Origin: a virus
Virus record (IMG/VR): IMGVR_UViG_3300046723_000260
Span: 1 to 64,000 of that record
DNA: 64,000 nucleotides
Strand: one strand, 5' to 3'
Under the pieces are notes generated by a model. The model was not told the origin of the DNA. It saw only the letters and a list, made by a program, of their open reading frames with translations, and ran no database searches. How positions within the stretch are numbered: the stretch's first letter is position 1; each line of letters begins with the position of its first letter. Made by a program: the position numbers and the translations under genes. Below are positions 39,677 through 60,194 of this stretch, piece by piece.

Positions 39677-39944
39677 GTTCGGGGTCAAAGCCGCCGTCGC
39701 CGCGGAGCGCGAGCGGTGCGCCAAGATCGCCGAGGCCCGCGAGGACGACCCGTTCAAACTCTTCGGCGAGGTCGCGACGCTGATCAGGTCGGGCAACCCC
39801 ATGACGACGGTCAAGCCGGTGCCCCTGCTCTGCGTGATCGGCTGGCATAGCTGGACGCGCGGCCGCGAGCCGATCAAGCTGGGCGGCCCGGTCTATCGCT
39901 GCCGCCATTGCGCGGCGACGAAGGGGCGCTACGAGGCCGGCTGA
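39663..39944 (+). CDS. Hypothetical protein with CxxC end
   Basis: 93 residues. AAVAAERERCAKIAEARED at residues 9-27 matches the module in the 38850 gene. The C-terminus WHSWTRGREPIKLG then YRCRHCAATKG suggests a metal-binding turn. It overlaps the terminase start (ATGA). Unknown function. Confidence 0.5.
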   Translation: MADDKFGVKAAVAAERERCAKIAEAREDDPFKLFGEVATLIRSGNPMTTVKPVPLLCVIGWHSWTRGREPIKLGGPVYRCRHCAATKGRYEAG

Positions 39945-41602
39945 TGGACTGGAAGCACCCAGACTACGCCGCGATCTTCGCCGAGCGGATGGCCAACCTG
40001 CACCGCATCCGCGAGAACCCCGAGGTCAGCGTCCCGGTGCTCAAGGAGAAGTACCGCGACAACATCGCGGACTTCATCGCCGACTGGGGCGTGACGTTCG
40101 ACCCGAGAAACCCGGAGCGCGACCTCCCCGCCGTCGTGCCGTTCGTGCTGTTCCCGAAGCAGCGCGAGTGGGTCGAGTGGCTGATCCGGCACTGGCACGG
40201 CCAGACGCCCGGCCTGGTCGAGAAGTCGCGCGACGTCGGCGCGACGTGGCTCGCGGCGTGCACGGCCTGCTCGCTCTGCATCTTCAACGAGGGGCTCGCG
40301 ATCGGCTTCGGCTCGCGCAAGGAGGAGTACGTCGACCGCCTGGGCACCTTGAAGCCGATCCTGCCGAAGGCGCGGATGTTCATGGAGCACCTCCCCGTCG
40401 AGTTTCGCGGCGGCTGGCAGTCGTGGCGGGACGCGCCGTTCATGCGGATCAACTTCCCCTCGACCGGCTCGCTGATCATGGGCGAGGCCGGCGACCAGAT
40501 CGGCCGCGGCGACCGCGCCTCGATCTACTTCGTCGACGAGAGCGCCCACCTCGAGCGGCCCGACCTCGTCGAGATGTCGCTGTCGCAGACGACCAACTGC
40601 CGGATCGACATGAGCTCGGTGAACGGGATGAACAACCCGTTCGCGAGGAAGCGCCACGAGGGCAAGGTCGACGTCTTCGTGTTCGACTGGCGCGACGACC
40701 CGCGGAAGGATCAGGCGTGGTACGACGCGCTCTCGAAGGGCGAGGACGAGGGCGGCCGCGGGCTCGACCCGGTCACGATCGCCCAGGAGGTCGACCGCGA
40801 CTACTCGGCCTCGGTCTCCGGCATCGTGATCCCCGGCGAGTGGGTGCGCGCGGCGATCGGCGCCCGCGAGCGGCTCGGCCTGCCGAAGGGCGGGCGCAAG
40901 CTGCTGGCGCTCGACGTCGCCGACGAGGGCGTCGACCAGAACGCGGCGGTCGGCTGCACCGGCATCGAGATCGACTTCGCCGAGCAGTGGTCGGGCAAGG
41001 GCGGCGACATCTTCGGCACGGTCGCCAAGGCGTTCGCGATCTGCGACGAGCACGGCTACCCGGGGCTGCGCTACGACGCCGACGGCCTCGGGGCGGGCGT
41101 CCGCGGCGACGCGCGGGTGCTGAACGAGCAGCGCCGCAGCGCGCGGGCGCGCGAGCTGCCCGTGGTCGGCTTCCGCGGCTCCGAGGCCCCGTTCGATCCG
41201 GACGCCGCGGTCGAGGGCACGCTCGGGCGCGAGGGCGAGAAGGGGCGGACCAACAAGGACTTCTTCGCCAACCGCAAGGCGCAGGCGTGGTGGGAGCTGC
41301 GCCGGCTGTTCCGCAACACGCACCGATGGGTGACGACCGGCAAGGCGTCGAGCCCCGACGAGATCATCTCGATCGACCCGGCGATGCCGCTGCGCTCGAA
41401 GCTGGTCAGCGAGCTGAGCCAGGCGACGATGGCGTTCAACGGCCAGGGCAAGATGGTGATCGACAAGCAGCCCGACGGCATGAAGAGCCCGAACCTCGCC
41501 GACGGCGTCGTGATCCGGAAGGCGCGGATGGAGCGCGGCCCGCTGCGGATCACGCCGGAGATCCTGGCGGCGGTGTCGGGCGGGCGCAGGAGGATGCGGT
41601 GA
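39944..41602 (+). CDS. terL: Terminase large subunit
   Basis: 552 residues. VEKSRDVGATWLAACTACS near residue 92-110 is the Walker A-like ATPase loop, and IYFVDESAHLERPDL near 195 the Walker B/catalytic Glu. The C-terminal nuclease part holds LLALDVADEGVDQN near 320 and LRYDADGLGAGVRG near 375, with the expected acidic metal ligands. It drives DNA into the head and cuts at the end of packaging. The start overlaps the upstream stop. Confidence 0.9.
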   Translation: MDWKHPDYAAIFAERMANLHRIRENPEVSVPVLKEKYRDNIADFIADWGVTFDPRNPERDLPAVVPFVLFPKQREWVEWLIRHWHGQTPGLVEKSRDVGATWLAACTACSLCIFNEGLAIGFGSRKEEYVDRLGTLKPILPKARMFMEHLPVEFRGGWQSWRDAPFMRINFPSTGSLIMGEAGDQIGRGDRASIYFVDESAHLERPDLVEMSLSQTTNCRIDMSSVNGMNNPFARKRHEGKVDVFVFDWRDDPRKDQAWYDALSKGEDEGGRGLDPVTIAQEVDRDYSASVSGIVIPGEWVRAAIGARERLGLPKGGRKLLALDVADEGVDQNAAVGCTGIEIDFAEQWSGKGGDIFGTVAKAFAICDEHGYPGLRYDADGLGAGVRGDARVLNEQRRSARARELPVVGFRGSEAPFDPDAAVEGTLGREGEKGRTNKDFFANRKAQAWWELRRLFRNTHRWVTTGKASSPDEIISIDPAMPLRSKLVSELSQATMAFNGQGKMVIDKQPDGMKSPNLADGVVIRKARMERGPLRITPEILAAVSGGRRRMR

Positions 41603-42112: not shown

Positions 42113-45100
42113 ATGGGATGGGGCGGGGCGCGTCCGGGAGCCGGCCGCAAGAAACCGAAGGCGCCGGCGACGCCGCCGCTCAAGCCCAAGCCGACTCCGG
42201 AGATGCGCGAGGCGGAGCGCCGCTCGGTCGCCGCCATGCACGAGATGATCGAGGCGTCCCGCGCGGCGGCCTCGTCGGCCCGCGAGAAGCAGGCGCACCT
42301 CAACCCGTTCGCCATCCGCCCGGACCTGTTCCCGCCGCCCGCCGTCCCGAAGGCCAAGGGGATGCGGCTCGCGATGGACGACGCGACCAACTGGGCGTCG
42401 AACGCCTGGGCGGCCTCCGGCGCGGTGCTCGGCGCGGCGCAAGAGGGGCTGATGTTCCTCGGCTACCCGTACCTCTCGGAGCTGGCGCAGCGCCCGGAGT
42501 ACCGGACCTTCGCGGAGACCATCGCGACGGAGGCGACCCGGAAGTGGATCAAGCTGAAGGGCTCGAAGGCCGAGGAGGAGGCCGAGGAGAAGGGCGCGAC
42601 CCCGGAGCAGGCGCAGGACGAGCAGGCCGAGGCCGACGACAAGAACGACAAGATCAAGGATCTGGAGGGCTACCTCAACCAGCTCCAGGTCCGCGACCAC
42701 TACGCCAAGATCGCGCTGCACGACGGGCTGTTCGGGCGGAGCCACCTCTACTACGACTTCGGCACCGATCTCGGCGATGACGAGCTCAAGACGCCGATCG
42801 GCAACGGTCGCGACGAGCTGACCAAGGCGAAGGTCACGACGGGATCGCTGAAGCGGCTGAGCGTGATCGAGCCGGTCTGGACCTACCCGACGACCTACAA
42901 CGCGAGCAACCCGCTGGCGCCCGACTGGTACAACCCGCAGGTCTGGTACGTGCTCGGGCGCGAGATCCACGCGAGCCGCATCCCGCGGTTCGTGAGCCGC
43001 GAGGTGCCGGACATCCTCAAGCCGGCGTACTCGTTCGGCGGGCTCTCGCTGACGCAGCTCGCCAAGCCCTACGTCGACATCTGGCTGACGACGCGGGCGA
43101 GCGTCGGGCAACTGATCCACGCGTTCTCGGTCATGGTGCTGATGACCGACCTGGAGAGCATCCTGCAGCCGGGCATCGCGACCTCGCTGCTGGCGCGCGT
43201 CAACCTGTTCAACGCGCTGCGCGACAACCAGGGGACGTTCGTCCTCAACAAGGAGACCGAGGAGTTCAAGAACGTCAGCGCGCCGCTCTCGGGCTTGCAC
43301 GAGCTCCAGGCCCAGGCGCAGGAGCACATGATGAGCGTCGCCCGCATCCCGGCGGTGAAGTTCACCGGGATGCAGCCGCAGGGGCTCAACGCGTCGAGCG
43401 AGGGCGAGATCAGGGCGTTCTACGACACCATCGAGGCGTTCCAGAACGCGTTCTTCCGCCCGAAGCTCAACACGACGCTCGACTTCGCGATGATCTCGCT
43501 GTGGGGCGCGCGCGACGAGGAGATCGTCTACGACTTCGAGCCGCTGTGGGCGCTGAGCGAGAAGGAGAAGGGCGAGCTTCGCAAGGCCGACGCGGAGACC
43601 GACCAGATCCGGATCGACACCGGCGTCGTTAGCTCGGAGGAGGTCCGCGCCAAGGTCGCGGCCGATCCGGACTCCGGCTTCGACAACCTCGACCCCAACG
43701 ACGTGCCCGACCTCCTGGAGGAGGAGGCGCAGGGCCTGCAGCCCGAAGGCGGGCGGCCGCAGCCGATCGCGCAGGGCGACCCGACCGGCGAAGTCAGCGA
43801 GGGAGGCGGGGCTAACGACGCCGTGGTCCCTTTCGGCGGCGGCGCTGACGAGGCGGGCTTCGAGGAATCGAAGCATCCCCGGGACGACGGCGGCAAGTTC
43901 ACGAGCGGCTCCGGCGGCGGCAAGGGCGTTCCGCACGCGCCGCAGTTCGGCCTCCAGCACGGCAAGTTCACCGCGCCCGGCGGCGGCTCGTCGTCGTCGT
44001 CCTGGTTCACCGGGTTCGGCGCGAAGAAGACCAACGTCGGGGAGCCGATCGACGTCTCGAAGATGAAGAAGGTCGGCGCCCAGATGGGCTCGAACCCGGG
44101 CGGCGTGTTCGAGGGCGAGGGCGGCGAGAAGTTCTACGTCAAGCGGGGCAAGTCGAAGGCCCACGTCCGCAACGAGATGGTCGCCGCGGCGCTCTACGAC
44201 CTGGCCGGCACGCCGACGCTGAAGTACCGGCCGGTCGAGGGCGGCGAGCACGTCGCGACCGAGATGGCGAAGCTCGACAAGGACAACGCGGCGAAGCTGT
44301 CGAAGGCCGAGCGGGCCGAGGCGGCGCGCGACTTCGCGGTCCACGCGTGGCTCGCCAACTGGGACGCGGTCGGCACCGGCGGCGACAACCTCGGCACCGT
44401 GCGCGGCGTGCCGACGGCGCTGGACCTCGGCGGCGCGCTGGAGTTCCGGGCGCAGGGCGCTCCGAAGGGCAAGGCGTTCGGCACGAAGGTCGGCGAGCTC
44501 GACACGCTGCGCGACGGCAGCAACCACGACGCGGCGAAGATGTTCGGCGACATGACGCCGGCGCAGATGCGCGAATCGGCGCGGTACGTCGCGGCGATCG
44601 GCGACCAGAAGATCAAGGACGCGGTCGAGAAGAACGGCGGCGACGCGGCGCTGGCCGAGAAGCTGATCAAGCGGCGCGACGACATCGCGGAGCGGATGAA
44701 GACGTTCGGCGAGGACGGCGACCCGGAGAGCCCGGACGGCACGATGGTCGTCCCCGCCGGCGGCAAGATGCCGATCAAGAAGCTGAACGGCGTGGCGTTC
44801 AAGCCGTGGCGGCCGCCGGCCGACTGGGCCGCGGTCGACGGCCAGGCCGAGATCGACGAGCCCGAGTTCTTCGTGACGCCGGGCAAGCGCGCCTCGACCG
44901 GCGTGATCGTGCGCGAGGCCGACGGGCGGGTGTGGCTGATCCAGCCGCGCAACGGCTACGGCGGCTACGAGGGGACGTTCCCGAAGGGCGGGCTCGAGAA
45001 GGGGCTGTCGCTGCAGGCCAACGCGATCAAGGAAACCTGGGAGGAGAGCGGGCTCAAGGTGAAGATCACCGGGTTCGCCGGCGACCACGAGGGCGACGCC

Positions 45101-47197
45101 TCGACGACGCGCTACTACCACGCCGAGCGCGAGGGCGGCGACCCGTCGCAGCACGACGACGAGAGCGAGGGCGTCGTGCTGGTCCCGGAGAGCAAGGCGG
45201 CGGGCTTCCTCAACCGCAAGCGCGACCAGGCGGTGCTGGCGCACGACGAGGCGAACTTCGAGGAGAGCAAGCACCCGCGCGACGCGGAGGGCAAGTTCGC
45301 CACGACCGCGGGAGGCGGCGGCGGGCCGAAGGAGTTCGCGAAGGAGCTGAAGAAGATCGTCGGCAAGCACGGCGAGGGCGGCTCGTTCGAGAGCGCCGAG
45401 AAGAAGGCGGTCGCCGCGCTGAAGAACAACGTCGGCGAGGAAGATCTGGAGGCGGCGCTGTCGCCGGTCGAGGCGCACGAGCTGAAGAAGGCGCACGGCG
45501 GCTCGCTCGCCAAGGCGATGCAGAACCTGGCCGAGGAACACGGCATCGGCGGGGAATCGCTCGCGGAGGAGCCTGATGATGAGGAGGAGGGCTCCCTCTC
45601 CGCGAAGCAGATCGAGGATCTCCCGCTGCTCGGCAAGGCGATGCAGTTCGTCCACGGCGGCGGGGTACCGCTGACGAACGCCGAAGCGACGACTTTGGCG
45701 AGCGAGATGGGAATGGAGATGCAGGACGTGTGGGACATGGTCGAAACGACCCCGCCCGATCTTACGCCATCGCTGGAAACGAAAGCTCCGGCGGCGACCT
45801 CTAGCGGCGGCAAGAAGACCGCGTTCGGCGGCCTGTGGAAGGTCGGCGTCGGTGCGCCGGGATCGGCCGAGGAGTTCGGCCACAACGTCGGGCACGTCCT
45901 CGGGAAGCCGACCAACGCGGGCTCGACCTACCGCACGATGCTCGGCTTCATGATGAAGAACGCCGCGAAGCACGGCATGCCCGAGATGGCCGAGAAGCTG
46001 AAGGACAAGCTCGGCGAGGCGTTCTTCCTGGCCGGCAACAAGGCGGCGCAGCAAGGCGAGGGCGCGGCCGCGGCGAAGGCGTTCAAGAAGGCGGCCGAGT
46101 TGGGATACCTCGGCGGCTCGCCGGCGGCGCCGCTCCTCGCACCCGCCGAGAAGGCGGTCGCGGCGGCGGCGAAGGCTCCGACCCCGAAGGCCGCGGCGAA
46201 GGCGGCGGAGGAGGTCAAGCCGAGCAGCTTCCCGGCCCCGACGGCGCAGGAGCTGGAGAAGGCGAAGAAGTCGGTGCAGCTCCAGTCCGCGTACGTGCCG
46301 GGCTTCAACGAGCTGCAGCAGATGAACGGGGCGATGACCGTGGTCCCGGAGGTGAACAAGCTCGTCAACGAGTTCAACGCCAAGTACGAGGGCAAGACGC
46401 TGACCGACGCCGGCGCGCTGGCGCAGAAGGTCAACGACTTCAAGACGCTCGGGGCGAAGGTCGCGGCGCTGAAGGCTTACGTGCAGCAGAACCAGACCGA
46501 GCTGCAAAAGAAGCAGGCGGCGAAGCAGAAGGAGGCGGCGGCCGAGCAGGCGAAGAAGGCCGCGGCGGAGAAGGAGAAGCTCAAGGCGCAGCACGCCGAG
46601 GTCACGAAGGAGCTCGGCATCACCGAGCCGGCCGAGCTGGAAGCCTTCGACGCGTTCGTCGACCACTTCGGCGGCACGAAGAACGCGCTCGACAAGTTCA
46701 AGTCGTGGACGGCGGAGGCGCAATACGCGGCGGCGAAGAACCCCGGCCACGGCTTCGAGAAGCTCTCCGGCTTCGAGATGGGCTGCATCAAGGCGTACAC
46801 CGGGCCGCAGTCCGGCTGGATCAACACGGCGATCCGCGACGACGCGATGACGCCGGCGCAGTTCATGTTCGAGAAGGTCCTCAACGCCGCGATCGACAAG
46901 CTGCCGAAGCAGACCAAGCCGACGAAGCGCGGACTCTCGCTCGACGCGGCGACGCAGGGGAAGCTCAAGCCCGGCGTGATCTGGACGCACCGCAACTTCG
47001 CGAGCAGCAGCTCGAGCGGATGGGGCGGCAACACCAAGCTGCACATCACGACCAGCGGCAAGGGCGGCGCATACGTCGACCCGATCTCGTCCCACAAGGG
47101 CGAGGACGAGACGCTGTTTAAGAGCAACCTGAAGCTCTATATTGAGAAGGTCGAGAACAAGGGCGGCGTGCTGCAGGTTTATTGCAAAGAGATGTGA
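42113..47197 (+). CDS. Portal fused to kinase-like, Nudix and ADP-ribosyltransferase domains
   Basis: 1694 residues in one frame. Residues 1-80: basic linker with GARPGAGRKK. About 85-520: DUF1073-type portal (NWASNAWAASGAVLGAAQEG, ARIPAVKFTGMQPQGLNASS). About 580: FEESKHPRDDGGKF tag. About 645-865: kinase-like fold (GGEKFYVKRGKSKAHVRNEM, HAWLANWDAVGTGGDNLG, LDLGGALEFRAQG). About 925-1045: Nudix domain with KETWEESGL, but Leu at the first Glu of the box. About 1049: second tag, FEESKHPRDAEGKF. Then helical and coiled-coil regions to about 1540. About 1560-1694: ADP-ribosyltransferase-like end (SGFEMGCIKAYTGPQSGWIN, Arg of TKRGLS, FASSSSSG, ExE of KGEDETLF). Extra parts probably enter the host with DNA. 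Confidence 0.75.
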   Translation: MGWGGARPGAGRKKPKAPATPPLKPKPTPEMREAERRSVAAMHEMIEASRAAASSAREKQAHLNPFAIRPDLFPPPAVPKAKGMRLAMDDATNWASNAWAASGAVLGAAQEGLMFLGYPYLSELAQRPEYRTFAETIATEATRKWIKLKGSKAEEEAEEKGATPEQAQDEQAEADDKNDKIKDLEGYLNQLQVRDHYAKIALHDGLFGRSHLYYDFGTDLGDDELKTPIGNGRDELTKAKVTTGSLKRLSVIEPVWTYPTTYNASNPLAPDWYNPQVWYVLGREIHASRIPRFVSREVPDILKPAYSFGGLSLTQLAKPYVDIWLTTRASVGQLIHAFSVMVLMTDLESILQPGIATSLLARVNLFNALRDNQGTFVLNKETEEFKNVSAPLSGLHELQAQAQEHMMSVARIPAVKFTGMQPQGLNASSEGEIRAFYDTIEAFQNAFFRPKLNTTLDFAMISLWGARDEEIVYDFEPLWALSEKEKGELRKADAETDQIRIDTGVVSSEEVRAKVAADPDSGFDNLDPNDVPDLLEEEAQGLQPEGGRPQPIAQGDPTGEVSEGGGANDAVVPFGGGADEAGFEESKHPRDDGGKFTSGSGGGKGVPHAPQFGLQHGKFTAPGGGSSSSSWFTGFGAKKTNVGEPIDVSKMKKVGAQMGSNPGGVFEGEGGEKFYVKRGKSKAHVRNEMVAAALYDLAGTPTLKYRPVEGGEHVATEMAKLDKDNAAKLSKAERAEAARDFAVHAWLANWDAVGTGGDNLGTVRGVPTALDLGGALEFRAQGAPKGKAFGTKVGELDTLRDGSNHDAAKMFGDMTPAQMRESARYVAAIGDQKIKDAVEKNGGDAALAEKLIKRRDDIAERMKTFGEDGDPESPDGTMVVPAGGKMPIKKLNGVAFKPWRPPADWAAVDGQAEIDEPEFFVTPGKRASTGVIVREADGRVWLIQPRNGYGGYEGTFPKGGLEKGLSLQANAIKETWEESGLKVKITGFAGDHEGDASTTRYYHAEREGGDPSQHDDESEGVVLVPESKAAGFLNRKRDQAVLAHDEANFEESKHPRDAEGKFATTAGGGGGPKEFAKELKKIVGKHGEGGSFESAEKKAVAALKNNVGEEDLEAALSPVEAHELKKAHGGSLAKAMQNLAEEHGIGGESLAEEPDDEEEGSLSAKQIEDLPLLGKAMQFVHGGGVPLTNAEATTLASEMGMEMQDVWDMVETTPPDLTPSLETKAPAATSSGGKKTAFGGLWKVGVGAPGSAEEFGHNVGHVLGKPTNAGSTYRTMLGFMMKNAAKHGMPEMAEKLKDKLGEAFFLAGNKAAQQGEGAAAAKAFKKAAELGYLGGSPAAPLLAPAEKAVAAAAKAPTPKAAAKAAEEVKPSSFPAPTAQELEKAKKSVQLQSAYVPGFNELQQMNGAMTVVPEVNKLVNEFNAKYEGKTLTDAGALAQKVNDFKTLGAKVAALKAYVQQNQTELQKKQAAKQKEAAAEQAKKAAAEKEKLKAQHAEVTKELGITEPAELEAFDAFVDHFGGTKNALDKFKSWTAEAQYAAAKNPGHGFEKLSGFEMGCIKAYTGPQSGWINTAIRDDAMTPAQFMFEKVLNAAIDKLPKQTKPTKRGLSLDAATQGKLKPGVIWTHRNFASSSSSGWGGNTKLHITTSGKGGAYVDPISSHKGEDETLFKSNLKLYIEKVENKGGVLQVYCKEM

Positions 47198-47199
47198 CG

Positions 47200-47523
47200 A
47201 TGGTCGAGCGAATCGACGCCACGCAGATGCTCCTGACGCCGGAGGAGGCCGCGCAGTTCGACGCGCAGGCCGCGGCGCAGGCGAGCGGATCCGCGAGCAA
47301 GGCCGAGGCGCGCTACCAGAACGAGCCGCGCGGCGAGGAGAGGTGCGACAAGTGCTCGATGTTCGTCGCGGGCTTCCCCACGGACCCCGGCGGCTTCTGC
47401 ACGAAGGTCACGTCGTTCCGCGGCGGCCCGCTCGGCACGATCTTCGCGGACGGCTGGTGCAGGTTCTTCGAGCCGGACCCGCTCGCGGAGGAGCAGCCCG
47501 AGGACTTCGCGGACTTGAAATGA
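47200..47523 (+). CDS. Cys-rich small protein, HiPIP-like pattern
   Basis: 107 residues. RCDKCSMFV, GGFCTKV and GWCRFFEP give a CxxC...C...C spacing like small iron-sulfur (high-potential) phage proteins that sit next to MuF genes. The N-terminal 45 residues are Ala/Gln/Glu helices. It overlaps the next gene by four bases. A metal centre is likely; its role in the head is unknown. Confidence 0.5.
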   Translation: MVERIDATQMLLTPEEAAQFDAQAAAQASGSASKAEARYQNEPRGEERCDKCSMFVAGFPTDPGGFCTKVTSFRGGPLGTIFADGWCRFFEPDPLAEEQPEDFADLK

Positions 47524-48305
47524 TCGCCAAGTCGGCCGCGCGCGCGATTCGCCCGAACGCCGGGATCGAGGCGGCGTACCGCAAGCGGCTCCGCCTCCTG
47601 CTGGAGGAGATGCGGCGCTCGGTCGAGCACTGGATCGAGGCCGCCTACCGGGACAACCCGCCGATCGCGATGGACTCGCCGGCCTCCGACCTCGACCGCG
47701 AGATGCGAAGGCTGTCGCGGCAATGGCGGCGGCGGTTCAACGAGGCTGCGCCGGAGATCGCGGCGCTGTTCGCGAGGCGCGCGCGAGGAGGAGCCGACGC
47801 GACGCTGCTGCGGATGCTCAAGCAGGCCGGCTTCACGGTCCCGTTCCGGATGACCAAGGGCATGCGCGACGTGGTCGACGCGACGGTCGCGGAGAACGTC
47901 TCGCTGATCCGCTCGATCCCGGAGAAGTACCTCGGCGACGTCCAGACGTCGGTGATGCAGAGCGTCAAGGCCGGCCGCGACCTCGCGACGCTGTCGAAGG
48001 ACCTTCGCAAGAACTACGGCGTGAGCTACCGGCGCGCGGCGCTGATCGCCCGCGACCAGAACAACAAGGCCACGAGCGCGCTGATGCGGGTCCGCCAGGT
48101 CGACCTCGGGCTCGAGAAGGGCGTGTGGCTGCACTCGCACGCCGGCAAGGAGCCGCGGCCGACCCACCTCGCCAACCACGGCAAGAAGTTCGACCTCAAG
48201 GAGGGCTGGTTCGACCCCGACCCGCGCGTCCGCAAGCGCATCCTGCCCGGCGAGCTGATCAACTGCCGCTGCGTCTGGAAGCCCGTCGTCCCGGGGCTGA
48301 CGTGA
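47520..48305 (+). CDS. MuF-type head morphogenesis protein
   Basis: 261 residues. ALIARDQNNKATSALMRVRQVDLGLEKG followed by HSHAGKEPRPTHLANHGKKF and ILPGELINCRCVWKPV is the MuF (SPP1 gp7-like) signature. It is a minor head protein located with the portal, thought to be injected or to aid DNA ejection. The N-terminal 100 residues are a helical domain. Confidence 0.85.
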   Translation: MIAKSAARAIRPNAGIEAAYRKRLRLLLEEMRRSVEHWIEAAYRDNPPIAMDSPASDLDREMRRLSRQWRRRFNEAAPEIAALFARRARGGADATLLRMLKQAGFTVPFRMTKGMRDVVDATVAENVSLIRSIPEKYLGDVQTSVMQSVKAGRDLATLSKDLRKNYGVSYRRAALIARDQNNKATSALMRVRQVDLGLEKGVWLHSHAGKEPRPTHLANHGKKFDLKEGWFDPDPRVRKRILPGELINCRCVWKPVVPGLT

Positions 48306-49399: not shown

Positions 49400-49981
49400 A
49401 TGTCGACCTGCGACCACTGCGCGCTCTGGCTGGTGCGCCGAGAGACCGGCTACGACGGCGGCGAGATCGTCGTCACCTGGTTCGACCCCGACGGCCGCGG
49501 CAAGTGCCTGGGACCGCTCAAGGGCGTCCTGACCGAGCCGGAGTTCGGCTGCAACTCGTTCCAGGATGGCGGTCCGCTGATCGAGACCTCCCGCAAGGGC
49601 GGCCACCCGTGGCAGCACGCGACGCCGATCCCGTGCCCCGACTGCCGCAAGCCCGGCTGCGGCTTCGTCGCGCCCGGCGAATGCACGGCGATCGGCTGCC
49701 CCGGGACCGACAAGTGCCTCGGGCTCGGCAGCGCCAACGACGGGGCCGACGGCCGCTGCGTCGGCACCGGGACCGTGCTGCGCTACGACGACGGCTTCGT
49801 CGGCGACAACCGCACGAAGAAGCACCCGAAGGAATCGGAGCGGGTCGAGCCGAGGTCGTGCCAGCGGTGCGCCAGGCCGGTCGAGACGACGTGGCTGCAC
49901 TGCCCCCACTGCGGGCAGAACCTGCACGAGGAGGGGAAGACCGAGGTCCTCAACGACGTCCTGACCGGAGGCATCACGTGA
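49400..49981 (+). CDS. Multi-zinc-ribbon protein
   Basis: 193 residues with repeated Cys pairs: CDHC near 4-7, CPDCRKPGC near 79, CTAIGCPGTDKC near 95, CQRCARP near 155 and CPHCGQNL near 169. The C-terminal pair is a classic zinc ribbon. The region between holds aromatic loops. It overlaps the start of the fusion gene at 49978, so the two are coupled and may act together. Confidence 0.5.
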   Translation: MSTCDHCALWLVRRETGYDGGEIVVTWFDPDGRGKCLGPLKGVLTEPEFGCNSFQDGGPLIETSRKGGHPWQHATPIPCPDCRKPGCGFVAPGECTAIGCPGTDKCLGLGSANDGADGRCVGTGTVLRYDDGFVGDNRTKKHPKESERVEPRSCQRCARPVETTWLHCPHCGQNLHEEGKTEVLNDVLTGGIT

Positions 49982-52320
49982 GAAGCGAGCACTTCTGGAG
50001 CTGGTTCGACGGCCACGCGGTGCCGCGGCTCAAGGGCGGCAACCCGCAGATGAACCGGGTCAACACGTTCCGGGCGATGTTCGAGCACCTCGACGGCTTC
50101 GAGGAGCCGCTGATCGTCGAGACCGGCTGCATCGAGGAGCCGGACAACTGGGTCGGCAACGGCTGCTCGACCATCATGTTCGACAAGTACGCGGACTTCG
50201 CCGGCGGCTTCGTCAGGTCGGTCGACATCGACCGGGGGAAGGCTTCGCGGGCCAACGCGCTGACCGGCGAGCGCACGACCGTCGCCTGCGCCGACAGCGT
50301 CGCGTTCTTGAAGGCGCTGGGCGCGCAGCCGGAAATTCCGGCGCTGGTCTACCTCGACGCGTCGCACCTCAACTGGCAGGTCGAGACCGAGGCGCAGGTC
50401 CACCACTTCCTGGAGCTGAAGGCGATCTGGCCGCGGCTGGCGCCCGACACGATGGTCGCGGTCGACGACAGCCCGGCGATCCTCGACGAGAACGGCCGGC
50501 TGATCATCTGCGGCAAGGGCGGGCTCGTCGCCCGGCACGCCGGCGAGGTCGGCGCGGCGCTGGCGTTCACCGAGTACCAGAGCGGCTGGACCGGCTTCCC
50601 CGGCTCGCCGGAGCGCACCGACGAGGCGGCCGAGGAGATCCTCGGGCGCGCGCGGTGGCTCCTGGAGAACGGCGAGTGGGCGAAGGCGCACCCGCTCTAC
50701 CGCTCGGTCCTGGTCCGCACCCCGCCGCCCTGGAACGGCGTCCAGCGCGTCATGCACGGCGAGGCTTGCGCGTTCTTCGCGCGGCTCGCGCTCCAGCACG
50801 AGCGGCCCGGCGCCGCGTTCGACTGGTTCAAGCGGGCGCTGGAGGCCGACCCGATGGCGGCCGACTACCGCGTCGAGCTGGTCAACAAGGCGATGCTGCC
50901 GCTCGGCATGACCGGCGCGGCGAAGTCGGAGGCCGAGCGGGCGACCAAGATCGAGCCGTCGAACCAGTACGCCTGGCGGACGCTCGGCCTGGTCGAGGGA
51001 AGGCTGAACAACGCGGCGAAGAGCCTCGCCGCGCACGAGGAGCAGGCGCGGCTGACCGGGCGGTCGACCGTGGCGCTGCTCGACGTGGTCGCGACGCTCG
51101 TCGACGTCGAGCGGTACGAGGAGGCGGCGACGCTGCTCAACGAGGTCGAGGCGCGCGACCCGAACGACGCGATGATGGGCGACGTCCGGCAGTGCCAGGC
51201 GATGATCCTGGCGCGGCACGGCGACCACGAGGCGGCGATCCAGCTCTTCGAGGACGCGATCGAGATCGGCTGCTGCGACCCGACGCTCTGCCACTTCCAC
51301 CTCTCGCTGTCGCTGCACTCGATCGGGCGCTACCGCGAGGGCTGGGCGCACCACTCGATGCGGGCGAAGAACGCGAGCGACCCGGCGCTGTTCGTGCCGA
51401 TGCGGCGGTTCGACCGGCCGCTCTTCACGCTCGACGCGCCGCCGTCGACGGTCCACGTCCACGCCGAGGCGGGAGCGGGCGACAACATCGCGATGCTGCG
51501 CTACCTGCCGCTGCTCCGGGAGATGGGCCACAAGGTCCGCTACGAGTGCCGCGACGAGCTGCTCGAGCTGGCGCGCTTCAGCCTGCCCGGCGTCGAGGTC
51601 GTGCCGATGGCGAAGGACTACCCCGGCAGCCTGGGGCTGCGGGACTTCGACCTGCACTGCCCGGTCGGCGAGCTGCCGCACGCGTTCGGGACCGAGGTCG
51701 ACACGGTGCCGTGGAGCGGTCCGTACCTCTCGGCCGACCCGGGGTGGGCCGAGCGGTTCGCCGAGCACAAGGGCAAGATCGGCCTCGCGTGGTCGTCCGG
51801 CATCCGCCCGGAGGGCATCTGGCTCAAGCGGTACGGCGAGCTGAAGTCGCTGAAGTTCAGGGACGTCGGTCGGCTGCTTTGGCAGGGCGACGGGTGGACC
51901 AAGCGGGCGTGGGAGAGGATGGTGTCGCTCCAGGTCGGATCGGGCCGCGAGGAGAACGACAAGCTGCTCCTCGCCGACGTGCTGAGCGAGAGCCCGACGT
52001 GGGCGGAGACCGCGGGGCTGCTCGCGAACCTCGACCTCGTCATCACGCCGGACACCGGGCTCGCGCACCTCGCCGGCGCGATGGGCAAGCGCACGATCCT
52101 GCTGATGCACTGCCACAACAGCGGCTGGCACTTCATGTGCGAGCGGCCCGGCGCGTTTTGGAACGAGCGCAGTCCGTGGTATCCGAGCGTCACCGTCGTC
52201 CGCCAGCGCGAATCGGGGCGGTGGGACGACGTCGTCGATCGCGCGCTCGGGATGGTCGAGCTGTGGGAGCGGACGCATGACCACGCAGAGGTGGCGGAGC
52301 CGGCGGGACCGGGAGCCTGA
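49978..52320 (+). CDS. Fusion: methyltransferase-like, TPR and glycosyltransferase domains
   Basis: 780 residues from GTG 49978, after GGAG. Residues about 40-170 read as a Rossmann methyltransferase (LIVETGCIEEPDNWVGNGCS, VRSVDIDRGKASRANAL, LVYLDASHLNWQVE, VAVDDSP). About 215-445 are TPR helices (GAAFDWFKRALEADPMAADY and related). About 490-770 are a GT9/OGT-like glycosyltransferase (HVHAEAGAGDNIAMLRYLPL, KIGLAWSSGIRPEG, LVITPDTGLAHLAGAMGK). It could attach sugars to virion or host proteins. Its placement among head genes suggests a virion target; this is inference. Confidence 0.7.
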   Translation: MRSEHFWSWFDGHAVPRLKGGNPQMNRVNTFRAMFEHLDGFEEPLIVETGCIEEPDNWVGNGCSTIMFDKYADFAGGFVRSVDIDRGKASRANALTGERTTVACADSVAFLKALGAQPEIPALVYLDASHLNWQVETEAQVHHFLELKAIWPRLAPDTMVAVDDSPAILDENGRLIICGKGGLVARHAGEVGAALAFTEYQSGWTGFPGSPERTDEAAEEILGRARWLLENGEWAKAHPLYRSVLVRTPPPWNGVQRVMHGEACAFFARLALQHERPGAAFDWFKRALEADPMAADYRVELVNKAMLPLGMTGAAKSEAERATKIEPSNQYAWRTLGLVEGRLNNAAKSLAAHEEQARLTGRSTVALLDVVATLVDVERYEEAATLLNEVEARDPNDAMMGDVRQCQAMILARHGDHEAAIQLFEDAIEIGCCDPTLCHFHLSLSLHSIGRYREGWAHHSMRAKNASDPALFVPMRRFDRPLFTLDAPPSTVHVHAEAGAGDNIAMLRYLPLLREMGHKVRYECRDELLELARFSLPGVEVVPMAKDYPGSLGLRDFDLHCPVGELPHAFGTEVDTVPWSGPYLSADPGWAERFAEHKGKIGLAWSSGIRPEGIWLKRYGELKSLKFRDVGRLLWQGDGWTKRAWERMVSLQVGSGREENDKLLLADVLSESPTWAETAGLLANLDLVITPDTGLAHLAGAMGKRTILLMHCHNSGWHFMCERPGAFWNERSPWYPSVTVVRQRESGRWDDVVDRALGMVELWERTHDHAEVAEPAGPGA

Positions 52321-57770: not shown

Positions 57771-57801
57771 CCGGCGAGGGAATCGGTGCTATCCATCGGC
57801 G

Positions 57802-57984
57802 ATGGGCCGGCTGAAATTCCTTCGGCGGTGGTTGCGGAGCGGGGTTTGCTACTCGCTCGTCGCCGCGCCGTGGCTCGCCGCCCCGATCGAGCGGTTCGCG
57901 CCCGGCGTCTATCCGTTCGGCCGCGAGCCCGTCCCGACCGACGAGGATCGCAAGCGCAGGCAGCGCGGCGCGGCGCGAACATGA
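57802..57984 (+). CDS. Small basic protein
   Basis: 60 residues, MGRLKFLRRWLRSGVCYSLV then APWLAAPIERFAPGVYPFGR. One hydrophobic patch and basic ends. The stop overlaps the protease ATG by four bases. Unknown function. Confidence 0.4.
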   Translation: MGRLKFLRRWLRSGVCYSLVAAPWLAAPIERFAPGVYPFGREPVPTDEDRKRRQRGAART

Positions 57985-60194
57985 TCACGAACCCGAGCTC
58001 CGGACCTCCCGCCGGCCTCCGCAAGCTGGTCGACGACATGCGCCAGCGCGGCATCGCCGACGACATGACGCCGGAGGACTGGGCGGCGATGCGGCGCGGC
58101 TTCAGCCAGTGGATGAGCGAGGAGGAGCGCGAGGGGGAGGAGCACGGCGAGGACGCCGAGTTCAAGGAATCGGATCACCCGCGCGACAACACCGGAAAGT
58201 TCGGATCGGGCGGCGGCGGCAAGACGTCGAGCAAGGATCCTGCCAGGGAGGGCCGGATCGCCGCCGGCTTCAAGGGCGGCACGCCCGGCGAGCAGGGCGA
58301 GATCGCGGCGAAGACCGACGCGGCGGCGGTCGAGCATTCCAAGAAGGCCGGGCTGGCGATCATCAAGCGGATCAAGCGCGACTCGTTCCTCGGCAAGTAC
58401 GCCAGCTCGGACGACGAGTACGGCAACGACCCGTTCACGGTCAGGAAGGACGGCTCGGTCGAGGTCTCGATGCGCGACGTCGGCCAGTGGGTCAACCCGC
58501 CCGGCAAGGAGCGCGAGGAGGACTACGACTGGAAGGTCCCGACCAAGGAAACCGAGGCCAAGGTCAAGGCGGCGGTCGCGTCGATGGAGAAGGAGCTCGG
58601 CGTCAAGATCAGCGTGAGCGGCGGCGAGAAGAGCTACACGTATTTCCGGATCTCCGCGCCGAAGGCCGGCGATGAGTCGGTGGCGACTGATTCGGCCCTT
58701 CGCCTCGCGCTCGACCGCGAATCGATCCGCGAGAAGTCGAAGGACGGGCACCTCCACGTCGCCCGCACGCCGATCTCGAAGGCGACCGTCAACCCGTACC
58801 GCGGCGCGGAGATTCCGAACTGCGAGGAGCTCGGCCTCGACCCCGAGGAGATCTACTACCTGCTGCGCGATCCGGACGAGCTGGCGAAGGCCGCGGCGAG
58901 CTTCAACGGCAAGCCTTTGCTGCGTAAACACGTGCCCGTCAGCGCCGAGGACCACGCCGCGCACGACACCATCGGCGCGGTGATGAACGACGCCGCGTTC
59001 GAGGATCCGTACCTCAAGGCGAGCCTCTCGGTTTGGCCGCAGGACGACATCGACGACATCGAGTCGGAGGCGAAGAAGGAGCTGTCGAGCGGCTACCACT
59101 ACCGCGCCGAGATGACTCCCGGAAATTTCCGTGGTATGCGCTACGACGGGGTGATGAGGGACATCGTTGGAAACCACGTCGCCCTGGTGAAAGATGGACG
59201 CGCCGGCCCGGACGTCGTGGTCGGTGACAGCATGGAGAGCCTCATGGCCAAGCCGACCCGTTTCGCCGCCCTCACCCTCGGCCTGGTCGCCGCCAACGTC
59301 GCACCGCTGATCGCCAAAGACTCGAAGATCGAGCTGCCGAAAGGCCTGTTCTCTTCGATCACCACCAAGAACTTCCAGACGAAAAGGACCGAGCTGCTCG
59401 GCGGCGTCCGCGCCGCGCTCGACGGCAAGCTCCGCAAGGGCCTCGCGCTCGACGCCAGCATGGAGCAGGTCGGCAAGGTGATGGACAACGTCGCCGGGCT
59501 GTTCGGCGAGAAGGGCGGCGACGAATCGGTCTCCGAGGAGCAGCACAACGCGATGGAGGCCGCGGCCCACGGCGAGAGCAACCTCGGCATCCCGAAGAGC
59601 GTCGGCGAGGAGTTCGAGAAGGCCGACAAGGGCAAGTCGTTCGACGCCGAGCCGTTGAAGAACTTCCTGCGCGAGAAGGGCATGGGCGAGGACGACATCA
59701 AGGCGGCGTTCGACATGCTGCCGAAGCCCGGCACGGACGCGTCCGAGGAGGAGCAGGCCGAGAAGACCGAGGAGGAGAAAAAGGCCGCGGTCAGCGAGGC
59801 CGTCGAGAAGGAGCGCAAAGCTATGGACGAGAAACTCAAGGGCATGGTCACGAAGACCGCGATGGACGAGGCGATCAAGGCCGCCGCGAAGACCACGCGC
59901 GAGACCGAGCGCGGCATCCGCGCCGCCCTGGACTTCGTCCGCCCCTACGTCGGCGAGCTCGCCTCGTCGCTGGCGCTCGACAGCGCCGACGACGTCTACC
60001 GCCACGCCGCGGTGGCGATGAAGATCGACGGCGCGAAGGACATCCACCCGTCGGCGCTGCCGACGCTGATCAAGATGCTGCCGAAGCCCGGCGCGCGCCA
60101 GACCGAGCACACCTCGATCGCGCAGGACGAGGCGACGGTGACCGACTTCGAGAAACGCTTCCCGAACGCCACCCGGATCCAGCCCGGCGCCTGA
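57981..60194 (+). CDS. DUF2213-type prohead protease fused to scaffold-like region
   Basis: 737 residues. Near residue 60 is FKESDHPRDNTGKF, the same tag as in the portal fusion. Residues 75-225 are an extra alpha-beta domain of unknown type. About 235-410 is the DUF2213 core (LHVARTPISKATVNPYRGAE, LLRKHVPVSAEDHAAHD, ELSSGYHYRAEMTPG, GNHVALVKDGRAG). The remaining 320 residues are Glu/Lys-rich helices like a scaffold. Protease-scaffold fusions organise capsid assembly and are then cut. It lies just upstream of the decoration and capsid genes. Confidence 0.75.
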   Translation: MITNPSSGPPAGLRKLVDDMRQRGIADDMTPEDWAAMRRGFSQWMSEEEREGEEHGEDAEFKESDHPRDNTGKFGSGGGGKTSSKDPAREGRIAAGFKGGTPGEQGEIAAKTDAAAVEHSKKAGLAIIKRIKRDSFLGKYASSDDEYGNDPFTVRKDGSVEVSMRDVGQWVNPPGKEREEDYDWKVPTKETEAKVKAAVASMEKELGVKISVSGGEKSYTYFRISAPKAGDESVATDSALRLALDRESIREKSKDGHLHVARTPISKATVNPYRGAEIPNCEELGLDPEEIYYLLRDPDELAKAAASFNGKPLLRKHVPVSAEDHAAHDTIGAVMNDAAFEDPYLKASLSVWPQDDIDDIESEAKKELSSGYHYRAEMTPGNFRGMRYDGVMRDIVGNHVALVKDGRAGPDVVVGDSMESLMAKPTRFAALTLGLVAANVAPLIAKDSKIELPKGLFSSITTKNFQTKRTELLGGVRAALDGKLRKGLALDASMEQVGKVMDNVAGLFGEKGGDESVSEEQHNAMEAAAHGESNLGIPKSVGEEFEKADKGKSFDAEPLKNFLREKGMGEDDIKAAFDMLPKPGTDASEEEQAEKTEEEKKAAVSEAVEKERKAMDEKLKGMVTKTAMDEAIKAAAKTTRETERGIRAALDFVRPYVGELASSLALDSADDVYRHAAVAMKIDGAKDIHPSALPTLIKMLPKPGARQTEHTSIAQDEATVTDFEKRFPNATRIQPGA

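What the first reader, a model, noticed from the sequence alone, without database searches (positions are those of the whole stretch)
42113..47197. Portal protein carrying kinase-like, Nudix and ADP-ribosyltransferase domains
One uninterrupted frame runs from a DUF1073-type portal through a kinase-like fold (HAWLANWD, DNLG, LDLGGALEF), a Nudix domain (KETWEESGL) and a C-terminal ART-like domain (Arg of RGLS, Ser-rich strand, ExE of KGEDETLF). Polyvalent phage proteins are known, as are injected ADP-ribosyltransferases (T4 Alt). A portal as the carrier, plus a Nudix enzyme able in principle to handle ADP-ribose or NAD products, would be a delivery device built into the head vertex. The Nudix box lacks its first Glu, so that domain may be altered or inactive.
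Basis: partly seen in the sequence, partly recalled or inferred. Interest (0 to 1): 0.88.

Follow-up and report, generated by a model that had tools for sequence, protein, structure and literature searches.

The report
Phage portal carrying three effector enzymes
This phage's DNA-entry (portal) protein carries on its tail a HipA/CtkA-like kinase, a Nudix hydrolase and an ADP-ribosyltransferase; relatives carry the same kit, some with a known anti-immunity enzyme, so the head is probably loaded with host-attacking or defence-blocking enzymes before infection.

Summary
ORF 42113-47197 (+) is one 1694-aa frame with a portal core, a kinase-like domain, a Nudix domain and a C-terminal ADP-ribosyltransferase (ART). 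It is not an artefact: codon periodicity is uniform, overlapping IMG/VR contigs agree, and three diverged relatives (L006, L022, L036) have portal-kinase-Nudix-ART in one frame. The ART and kinase models are confident; nearest solved structures are Tre1 (ART) and CtkA (kinase). The Nudix box lacks its first Glu in every relative too, while its three core glutamates are invariant, so inactivity is not indicated. The kinase family has hundreds of relatives, mostly unrecognised by Pfam, and recurs with ART and/or Nudix on portal, MuF, minor capsid and head-protease carriers. In Yersinia phage fHe-Yen8-01 the three domains are recorded as particle-associated. Three relatives add Acb1, an anti-CBASS enzyme. 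HPRDxxGKF linkers separate modules and recur in this phage's head maturation protease. Best reading: a virion-carried polyvalent effector, probably cut free in the head and ejected with the DNA to modify host proteins and blunt defence. Portal-ART and portal-Nudix fusions were already described (PMC9503650); new are the kinase, the recurring trio, the Acb1 link and the shared linker. Cleavage, ejection and activity remain inferred.

The parts
42113..47197 (+). Portal-effector polyprotein, 1694 aa
   Evidence: Single open frame, uniform GC3; same frame in L002/L003/L004; same architecture in L006, L022, L036
42470..43609 (+). Portal core (Phage_portal_3/DUF1073), aa 120-499
   Evidence: Pfam PF06381 E=1.4e-75; phrog_146 E=1.2e-98; only match to this protein in the record
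43874..43900 (+). Linker motif HPRDDGGKF (aa 588), portal/kinase boundary
   Evidence: Regex and repeat search
44030..44752 (+). HipA/CtkA-like kinase domain, aa 640-880 (K677, E688, D751, N759, D771)
   Evidence: 61-sequence alignment; HipA_C in 17/61; pLDDT 95.5 model; best PDB match CtkA E=1.5e-5
44795..45253 (+). Nudix domain, aa 895-1047 (box E974, E977, E978)
   Evidence: Pfam PF00293 E=4.7e-12; profile vs PDB Ap4A hydrolase 1.2e-11; KExxEE invariant in 21 sequences
45272..45298 (+). Linker motif HPRDAEGKF (aa 1054), after the Nudix domain
45302..46549 (+). Unnamed helical/spacer region, aa 1064-1479; parts shared with L006 and L022 ahead of the ART
   Evidence: phmmer 'mid' and 'mid2' matches; no credible Pfam family
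46550..47194 (+). ADP-ribosyltransferase domain with helical lead-in, aa 1480-1694 (R1606, S1631, E1664, E1666)
   Evidence: Profile vs PDB Tre1 E=1.3e-19; pLDDT 93.5 model; Foldseek Tre1 TM(target) 0.81-0.88; catalytic columns
57786..60194 (+). Head maturation protease (DUF2213); candidate processing enzyme
   Evidence: phrog_2229 E=3.3e-108; PF09979 E=5.3e-48
58176..58202 (+). HPRDNTGKF motif (aa 131) in the head maturation protease, same as in the portal polyprotein
47142..48305 (+). ORF holding the MuF head-morphogenesis protein (domain in its 3' part)
   Evidence: PF04233 E=2.7e-13; phrog_324 E=2.4e-80
39908..41602 (+). Large terminase
   Evidence: phrog_2 E=1.4e-23

Best explanation
It is a virion-carried polyvalent effector built on the portal. 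The N-terminal third forms the ordinary portal ring. The roughly 1,100-residue C-terminal tail, up to twelve copies, hangs inside the head and carries a HipA/CtkA-like protein kinase, a Nudix hydrolase and a Tre1-like ART, separated by HPRDxxGKF-(Ser/Gly) linkers. The most likely course: at maturation the phage's own DUF2213 head protease cuts near some linkers; the freed enzymes stay with the packaged DNA and enter the host with it. There the ART and kinase modify host proteins, and the Nudix enzyme removes a nucleotide or ADP-ribose-type molecule. Together they pre-empt host defence and favour takeover before any phage gene is expressed. Shown: frame, folds (two predicted), conserved active-site residues, recurrence on several head carriers, linker positions, presence of a head protease. 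Inferred: lumenal position (portal C-termini generally face the head interior; own knowledge), cleavage, ejection, catalysis, targets.
For: Domain and frame evidence. Same order portal-kinase-Nudix-ART in L006, L022, L036; portal-kinase-Nudix in L005, L035, L037, L038; portal-kinase-ART in L046, L056, L122; portal-ART in L015, L031, L115. The kinase rides on other head carriers too: Nudix-kinase-DUF2213 protease (L051), MuF-kinase-ART (L148), minor capsid 2-kinase-ART (L133); Pfam tallies show head carriers in further kinase ORFs. On a FastTree tree of 129 kinase domains portal linkage needs 4 changes (at least 3 forced by starred branches), Nudix 9, ART 27. In Yersinia phage fHe-Yen8-01 a 2146-aa kinase+ART protein and the nearby Nudix protein are both recorded as particle-associated; a paper on other Finnish Yersinia phages uses that term for LC-MS/MS-detected virion proteins. 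Acb1 (anti-CBASS) lies in the polyproteins L006, L036, L038 (E=1e-29 to 9e-38). HPR motif in 36 of 62 portal ORFs against 8 of 3005 ORFs without a scored domain, and in this phage's own head protease.
Against: No virion proteomics for this uncultured phage. No cleavage site is known; the motif could simply be a linker. The particle-associated relatives are separate proteins, not portal fusions, and their label is a deposited annotation with no paper found. Some loci are redundant copies of the same contigs, so motif counts are inflated. Pfam scores the window's own ART below its cut-off. Acb1 is not found in this record, though that search had no positive control.
Confidence: 0.76

Rival explanations
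1. The enzymes act in the producing cell late in infection, before or instead of ejection: for example they protect the portal or terminase from immune sensors that recognise these proteins, or exclude other phages, while the portal is being made.
For: PMC9503650 raises this possibility for ARTs encoded near portal and terminase genes. From my own knowledge, Avs-type defences sense portal and terminase proteins.
Against: The same domains ride on MuF, protease and minor capsid proteins, and homologues are recorded as particle-associated; neither is needed for a purely late role.
Confidence: 0.12
2. The C-terminal domains are fused cargo with no catalytic role, kept as structural filler or as binding modules inside the head.
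For: The Nudix box is non-canonical at position 7 (Glu replaced) and position 15 (Lys for Arg); two ART relatives (L052, L058) lack the first Glu of ExE.
Against: Kinase K, D, N, D residues are invariant in 61 sequences, KExxEE in 21 of 21, ART Arg and second Glu in all 26-27; Acb1 shares the polyprotein in relatives.
Confidence: 0.08
3. The long frame is an assembly or sequencing artefact joining separate genes.
For: None found; separate-gene versions exist in other phages such as Mecenats66.
Against: Codon periodicity is uniform, overlapping contigs agree, and diverged relatives keep the fusion in frame.
Confidence: 0.01

Closest known systems
Phage polyvalent effector proteins and head-carried NAD/ADP-ribose enzymes (PMC5512222, PMC9503650)
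   Same: Multi-enzyme proteins linked to head proteins, including ART and Nudix domains fused to portal or MuF; packaging and injection proposed
   Different: The kinase group described in PMC5512222 is a Ser/Thr/Tyr type that lost its C-terminal subdomain; the passages I read do not mention a HipA/CtkA-like kinase, the kinase-Nudix-ART trio on a portal, or the HPR linker
T4 Alt (injected ART)
   Same: ART predicted to be carried in the head and to act at the start of infection
   Different: Alt is a separate protein; here the ART is the end of a portal polyprotein and is closest to Tre1 among solved structures
Gene row of Morganella phage Mecenats66, Pseudomonas phage Dolphis, Yersinia phage fHe-Yen8-01
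   Same: Kinase+ART protein, small protein, Nudix protein encoded in a row; the Yersinia ones recorded as particle-associated
   Different: Separate genes, not fused to the portal
Tre1 (type VI effector ART; 6DRE/6DRH)
   Same: Closest solved fold to the ART (TM 0.81-0.88 on target, about 2 A)
   Different: 24% identity; acts in bacterial competition; target of the phage enzyme unknown
HipA and CtkA kinases
   Same: Weak HipA_C profile hits; CtkA is the best PDB fold; kinase catalytic residues kept
   Different: TM only about 0.5, no credible sequence-level PDB match; here part of a virion protein
Acb1 anti-CBASS protein
   Same: Present in the portal polyproteins of relatives L006, L036, L038
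   Different: Not found in this record

Membership tests
Phage portal (Phage_portal_3/DUF1073) | Profile match over the whole portal core, encoded between terminase and MuF | tested here: met
   PF06381 3-357/357, E=1.4e-75; phrog_146 E=1.2e-98; neighbours terminase and MuF
Phage portal (Phage_portal_3/DUF1073) | Forms a twelve-fold ring at one head vertex | not testable with these tools
   Established for portals in general; not shown here
Nudix hydrolases | Profile match above the curated cut-off | tested here: met
   46.5 bits against 21.1
Nudix hydrolases | Canonical box Gx5Ex7REUxEExGU | tested here: not met
   Position 7 is Leu (family trait), position 15 Lys; G1, E16, E19, E20, G22 kept in 21/21. 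A variant box: the claim is limited to a Nudix-fold relative by profile and PDB matches, activity unproven
ADP-ribosyltransferases (R-S-E class) | ART fold | tested here: met
   Tre1 rank 1, about 2 A, E=3.4e-12
ADP-ribosyltransferases (R-S-E class) | Arg, Ser-rich strand, ExE | tested here: met
   R1606, S1631, E1664 and E1666 in conserved columns
ADP-ribosyltransferases (R-S-E class) | Transfers ADP-ribose from NAD | not testable with these tools
   Needs an assay
HipA/CtkA-like kinases | HipA-type profile match | tested here: inconclusive
   HipA_C in 17 of 61 relatives, best E=0.0013; the window domain itself none
HipA/CtkA-like kinases | Kinase fold of the HipA/CtkA kind | tested here: met
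   CtkA ranks 1-7, E=1.5e-5 to 1.6e-4, TM(query) 0.48-0.56; moderate similarity only
HipA/CtkA-like kinases | Catalytic K, E, D, N, D | tested here: met
   K38, D112, N120, D132 invariant, E49 at least 90%
Polyvalent effector proteins | Several effector domains in one polypeptide | tested here: met
   Kinase, Nudix, ART
Polyvalent effector proteins | Packaged in the virion and injected | not testable with these tools
   Homologues recorded as particle-associated in fHe-Yen8-01

The most novel reading that the evidence does not exclude
Kinase, Nudix and ART are a dedicated, mobile three-enzyme counter-defence kit that tailed phages load into the head by plugging HPRDxxGKF-tagged modules into whichever head protein is at hand, with the head maturation protease cutting the modules loose, so that enzymatic immune evasion precedes gene expression.
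Probability: 0.35. Interest if true: 0.78.

Novelty: new variant of a known kind. Interest (0 to 1): 0.62.

Why it matters
It brings out a large phage kinase-like family that Pfam mostly does not recognise, ties it repeatedly to ART and Nudix enzymes on several head proteins, and links the same polyproteins to a proven anti-immunity enzyme (Acb1). That makes the general proposal of head-carried polyvalent effectors testable: predicted cut regions, a candidate protease, and culturable phages with the same enzymes as separate genes.

Tried and rejected
Frame artefact: rejected. Inactive Nudix because of the missing first Glu: not supported, family trait with intact KExxEE. Kinase by sequence against the PDB: only chance matches, best a surface-layer protein. 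Acb1 in the window's own record: no match, but the control did not ring. Literature: no paper on fHe-Yen8-01 in the library; no paper holding HipA, phage, portal protein and Nudix together; the Mecenats66 paper does not name ORF50-52 in its main text. DNA repeats in the ORF are mostly Lys/Ala/Glu-codon noise apart from the duplicated HPR linker.

Full report
What was checked. The window lies in a 72,242-base virus record. The frame 42113-47197 (+) encodes 1694 residues between a large terminase (39908-41602) and an ORF holding a MuF protein (47142-48305). It is the only match to itself in the record, so the one portal of this kind carries the extra domains. GC at third codon positions stays at 0.89-0.99 along the whole frame, and overlapping contigs L002, L003 and L004 read the same frame. 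Those contigs may sample the same population. The independent evidence is that L006 (2407 aa), L022 (2558 aa) and L036 (1728 aa) have portal, kinase, Nudix and ART in the same order and frame, while being only 59-65% identical to the window in the kinase and 34-36% in the ART.

Domains. Portal: PF06381 aa 120-499, E=1.4e-75. Nudix: PF00293, E=4.7e-12, with Ap4A hydrolase as the best PDB match of the family profile, E=1.2e-11. ART: below the Pfam cut-off alone, but a five-sequence profile finds Tre1 at 1.3e-19, then Vis and SpvB. The model has pLDDT 93.5 and Foldseek ranks Tre1 first at about 2 A. Arg1606 and Glu1666 are invariant in 26-27 sequences; Ser1631 and Glu1664 are at least 90% conserved. 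Kinase: no credible Pfam hit of its own; 17 of 61 relatives hit HipA_C, best E=0.0013. The model has pLDDT 95.5 and its best PDB match is CtkA of Helicobacter pylori, which I know as a HipA-like kinase, E=1.5e-5, TM about 0.5. Lys677, Asp751, Asn759 and Asp771 are invariant in 61 sequences and Glu688 nearly so. In the viral structure library the same fold appears in proteins named portal, ADP-ribosyltransferase and Nudix.

The Nudix box. Across 21 relatives that position is Leu (16), Ile (3), His (1) or Asp (1), with Lys at the usual Arg; the core KExxEE is kept in 21 of 21. This is a variant family, not a decayed copy.

Recurrence. The kinase has 374 confirmed relatives in IMG/VR and 70 in GTDB genomes. 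Among ORFs containing it, Pfam finds ADPrib_exo_Tox in 17 of 51 genome ORFs and 16 of 39 viral ORFs, NUDIX in 6 and 13, Phage_Mu_F in 8 and 2, portal in 1 and 9, minor capsid 2 in 2 and 1, and DUF2213 in 1 viral ORF. Named examples: L051 Nudix-kinase-head protease, L148 MuF-kinase-ART, L133 minor capsid-kinase-ART. These sets were chosen by the kinase, not by carrier, so the carriers are not built in by the search; but many ORFs have no recognised carrier, and contig-edge ORFs make some absences false. On a FastTree tree of 129 kinase domains the portal label needs 4 changes (at least 3 forced by well-supported branches; shuffled mean 14.5), the Nudix label 9 and the ART label 27. The ART is thus gained and lost often.

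Packaging evidence. In Yersinia phage fHe-Yen8-01 the kinase+ART protein (kinase 1568-1791, ART 1963-2117) and the Nudix protein two genes on are recorded as phage particle associated. No paper on this phage was found. A paper on other Finnish Yersinia phages applies that term to proteins found in virions by LC-MS/MS, so the label probably rests on proteomics, but this is inference. Mecenats66 and Dolphis show the same gene row; ST4 has a similar row whose annotated ART my profile did not match.

Function hint. Three relatives (L006, L036, L038) carry Acb1 (PF23474, E=1.3e-29, 3.5e-33, 9e-38) in the same polyprotein. Acb1 is known (own knowledge) to destroy the cyclic nucleotides that trigger CBASS. 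This favours counter-defence for the kit as a whole; it does not prove the role of each enzyme.

Linkers. HPRDDGGKF and HPRDAEGKF stand at the portal/kinase boundary and after the Nudix domain. The motif is found in 36 of 62 portal-containing ORFs against 8 of 3005 ORFs without a scored domain (loci partly redundant). The only other window ORF with it is the DUF2213 head maturation protease, aa 131, and L051's protease fusion has it too. I infer a module tag, possibly near a cut site. P1 DarA and DdrB are precedents for processing before packaging.

Mechanism and verdict. See best explanation: confidence 0.76 that it is a virion-carried effector, about 0.5 that it is cut, about 0.6 that it is ejected, about 0.45 that counter-defence is the main purpose. 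Portal-ART and portal-Nudix fusions and the packaging idea are already published. New here, as far as the held library shows: the HipA/CtkA-like kinase and its breadth, the recurring kinase-Nudix-ART trio on several head carriers, the Acb1 link, and the linker shared with the protease. It is a new variant of a known kind.

Noticed in passing
L022:5398-13071: Portal interrupted by an intein-like insertion (Intein_splicing E=2.7e-6, Hint_2); similar split portals in L026, L028, L029, L030 and L042 were not examined.
   Followed up: partly
window 47200-47520 (+): Small ORF after the portal with a HiPIP-like cysteine pattern (Pfam HIPIP E=0.005, below cut-off); a similar Cys motif lies inside the L022 portal polyprotein.
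   Followed up: partly
L018:7588-8598: Portal tail carrying a topoisomerase IB domain (E=7e-19): the cargo slot takes other enzymes.
   Followed up: no
L152, L153, L171, L175: Kinase+Nudix proteins of 555-755 aa in Pseudomonas syringae-group genomes; L152 also shows an ART-like ExE stretch by eye. Context not examined.
   Followed up: no
L123:7416-8702: The same kinase fused to a dual-specificity phosphatase-like domain in Rhodobacter; four genome ORFs hit such phosphatase families.
   Followed up: no
window 49504-52317 (+): ORF with TPR repeats and weak methyltransferase and glycosyltransferase 9 matches between head genes.
   Followed up: no
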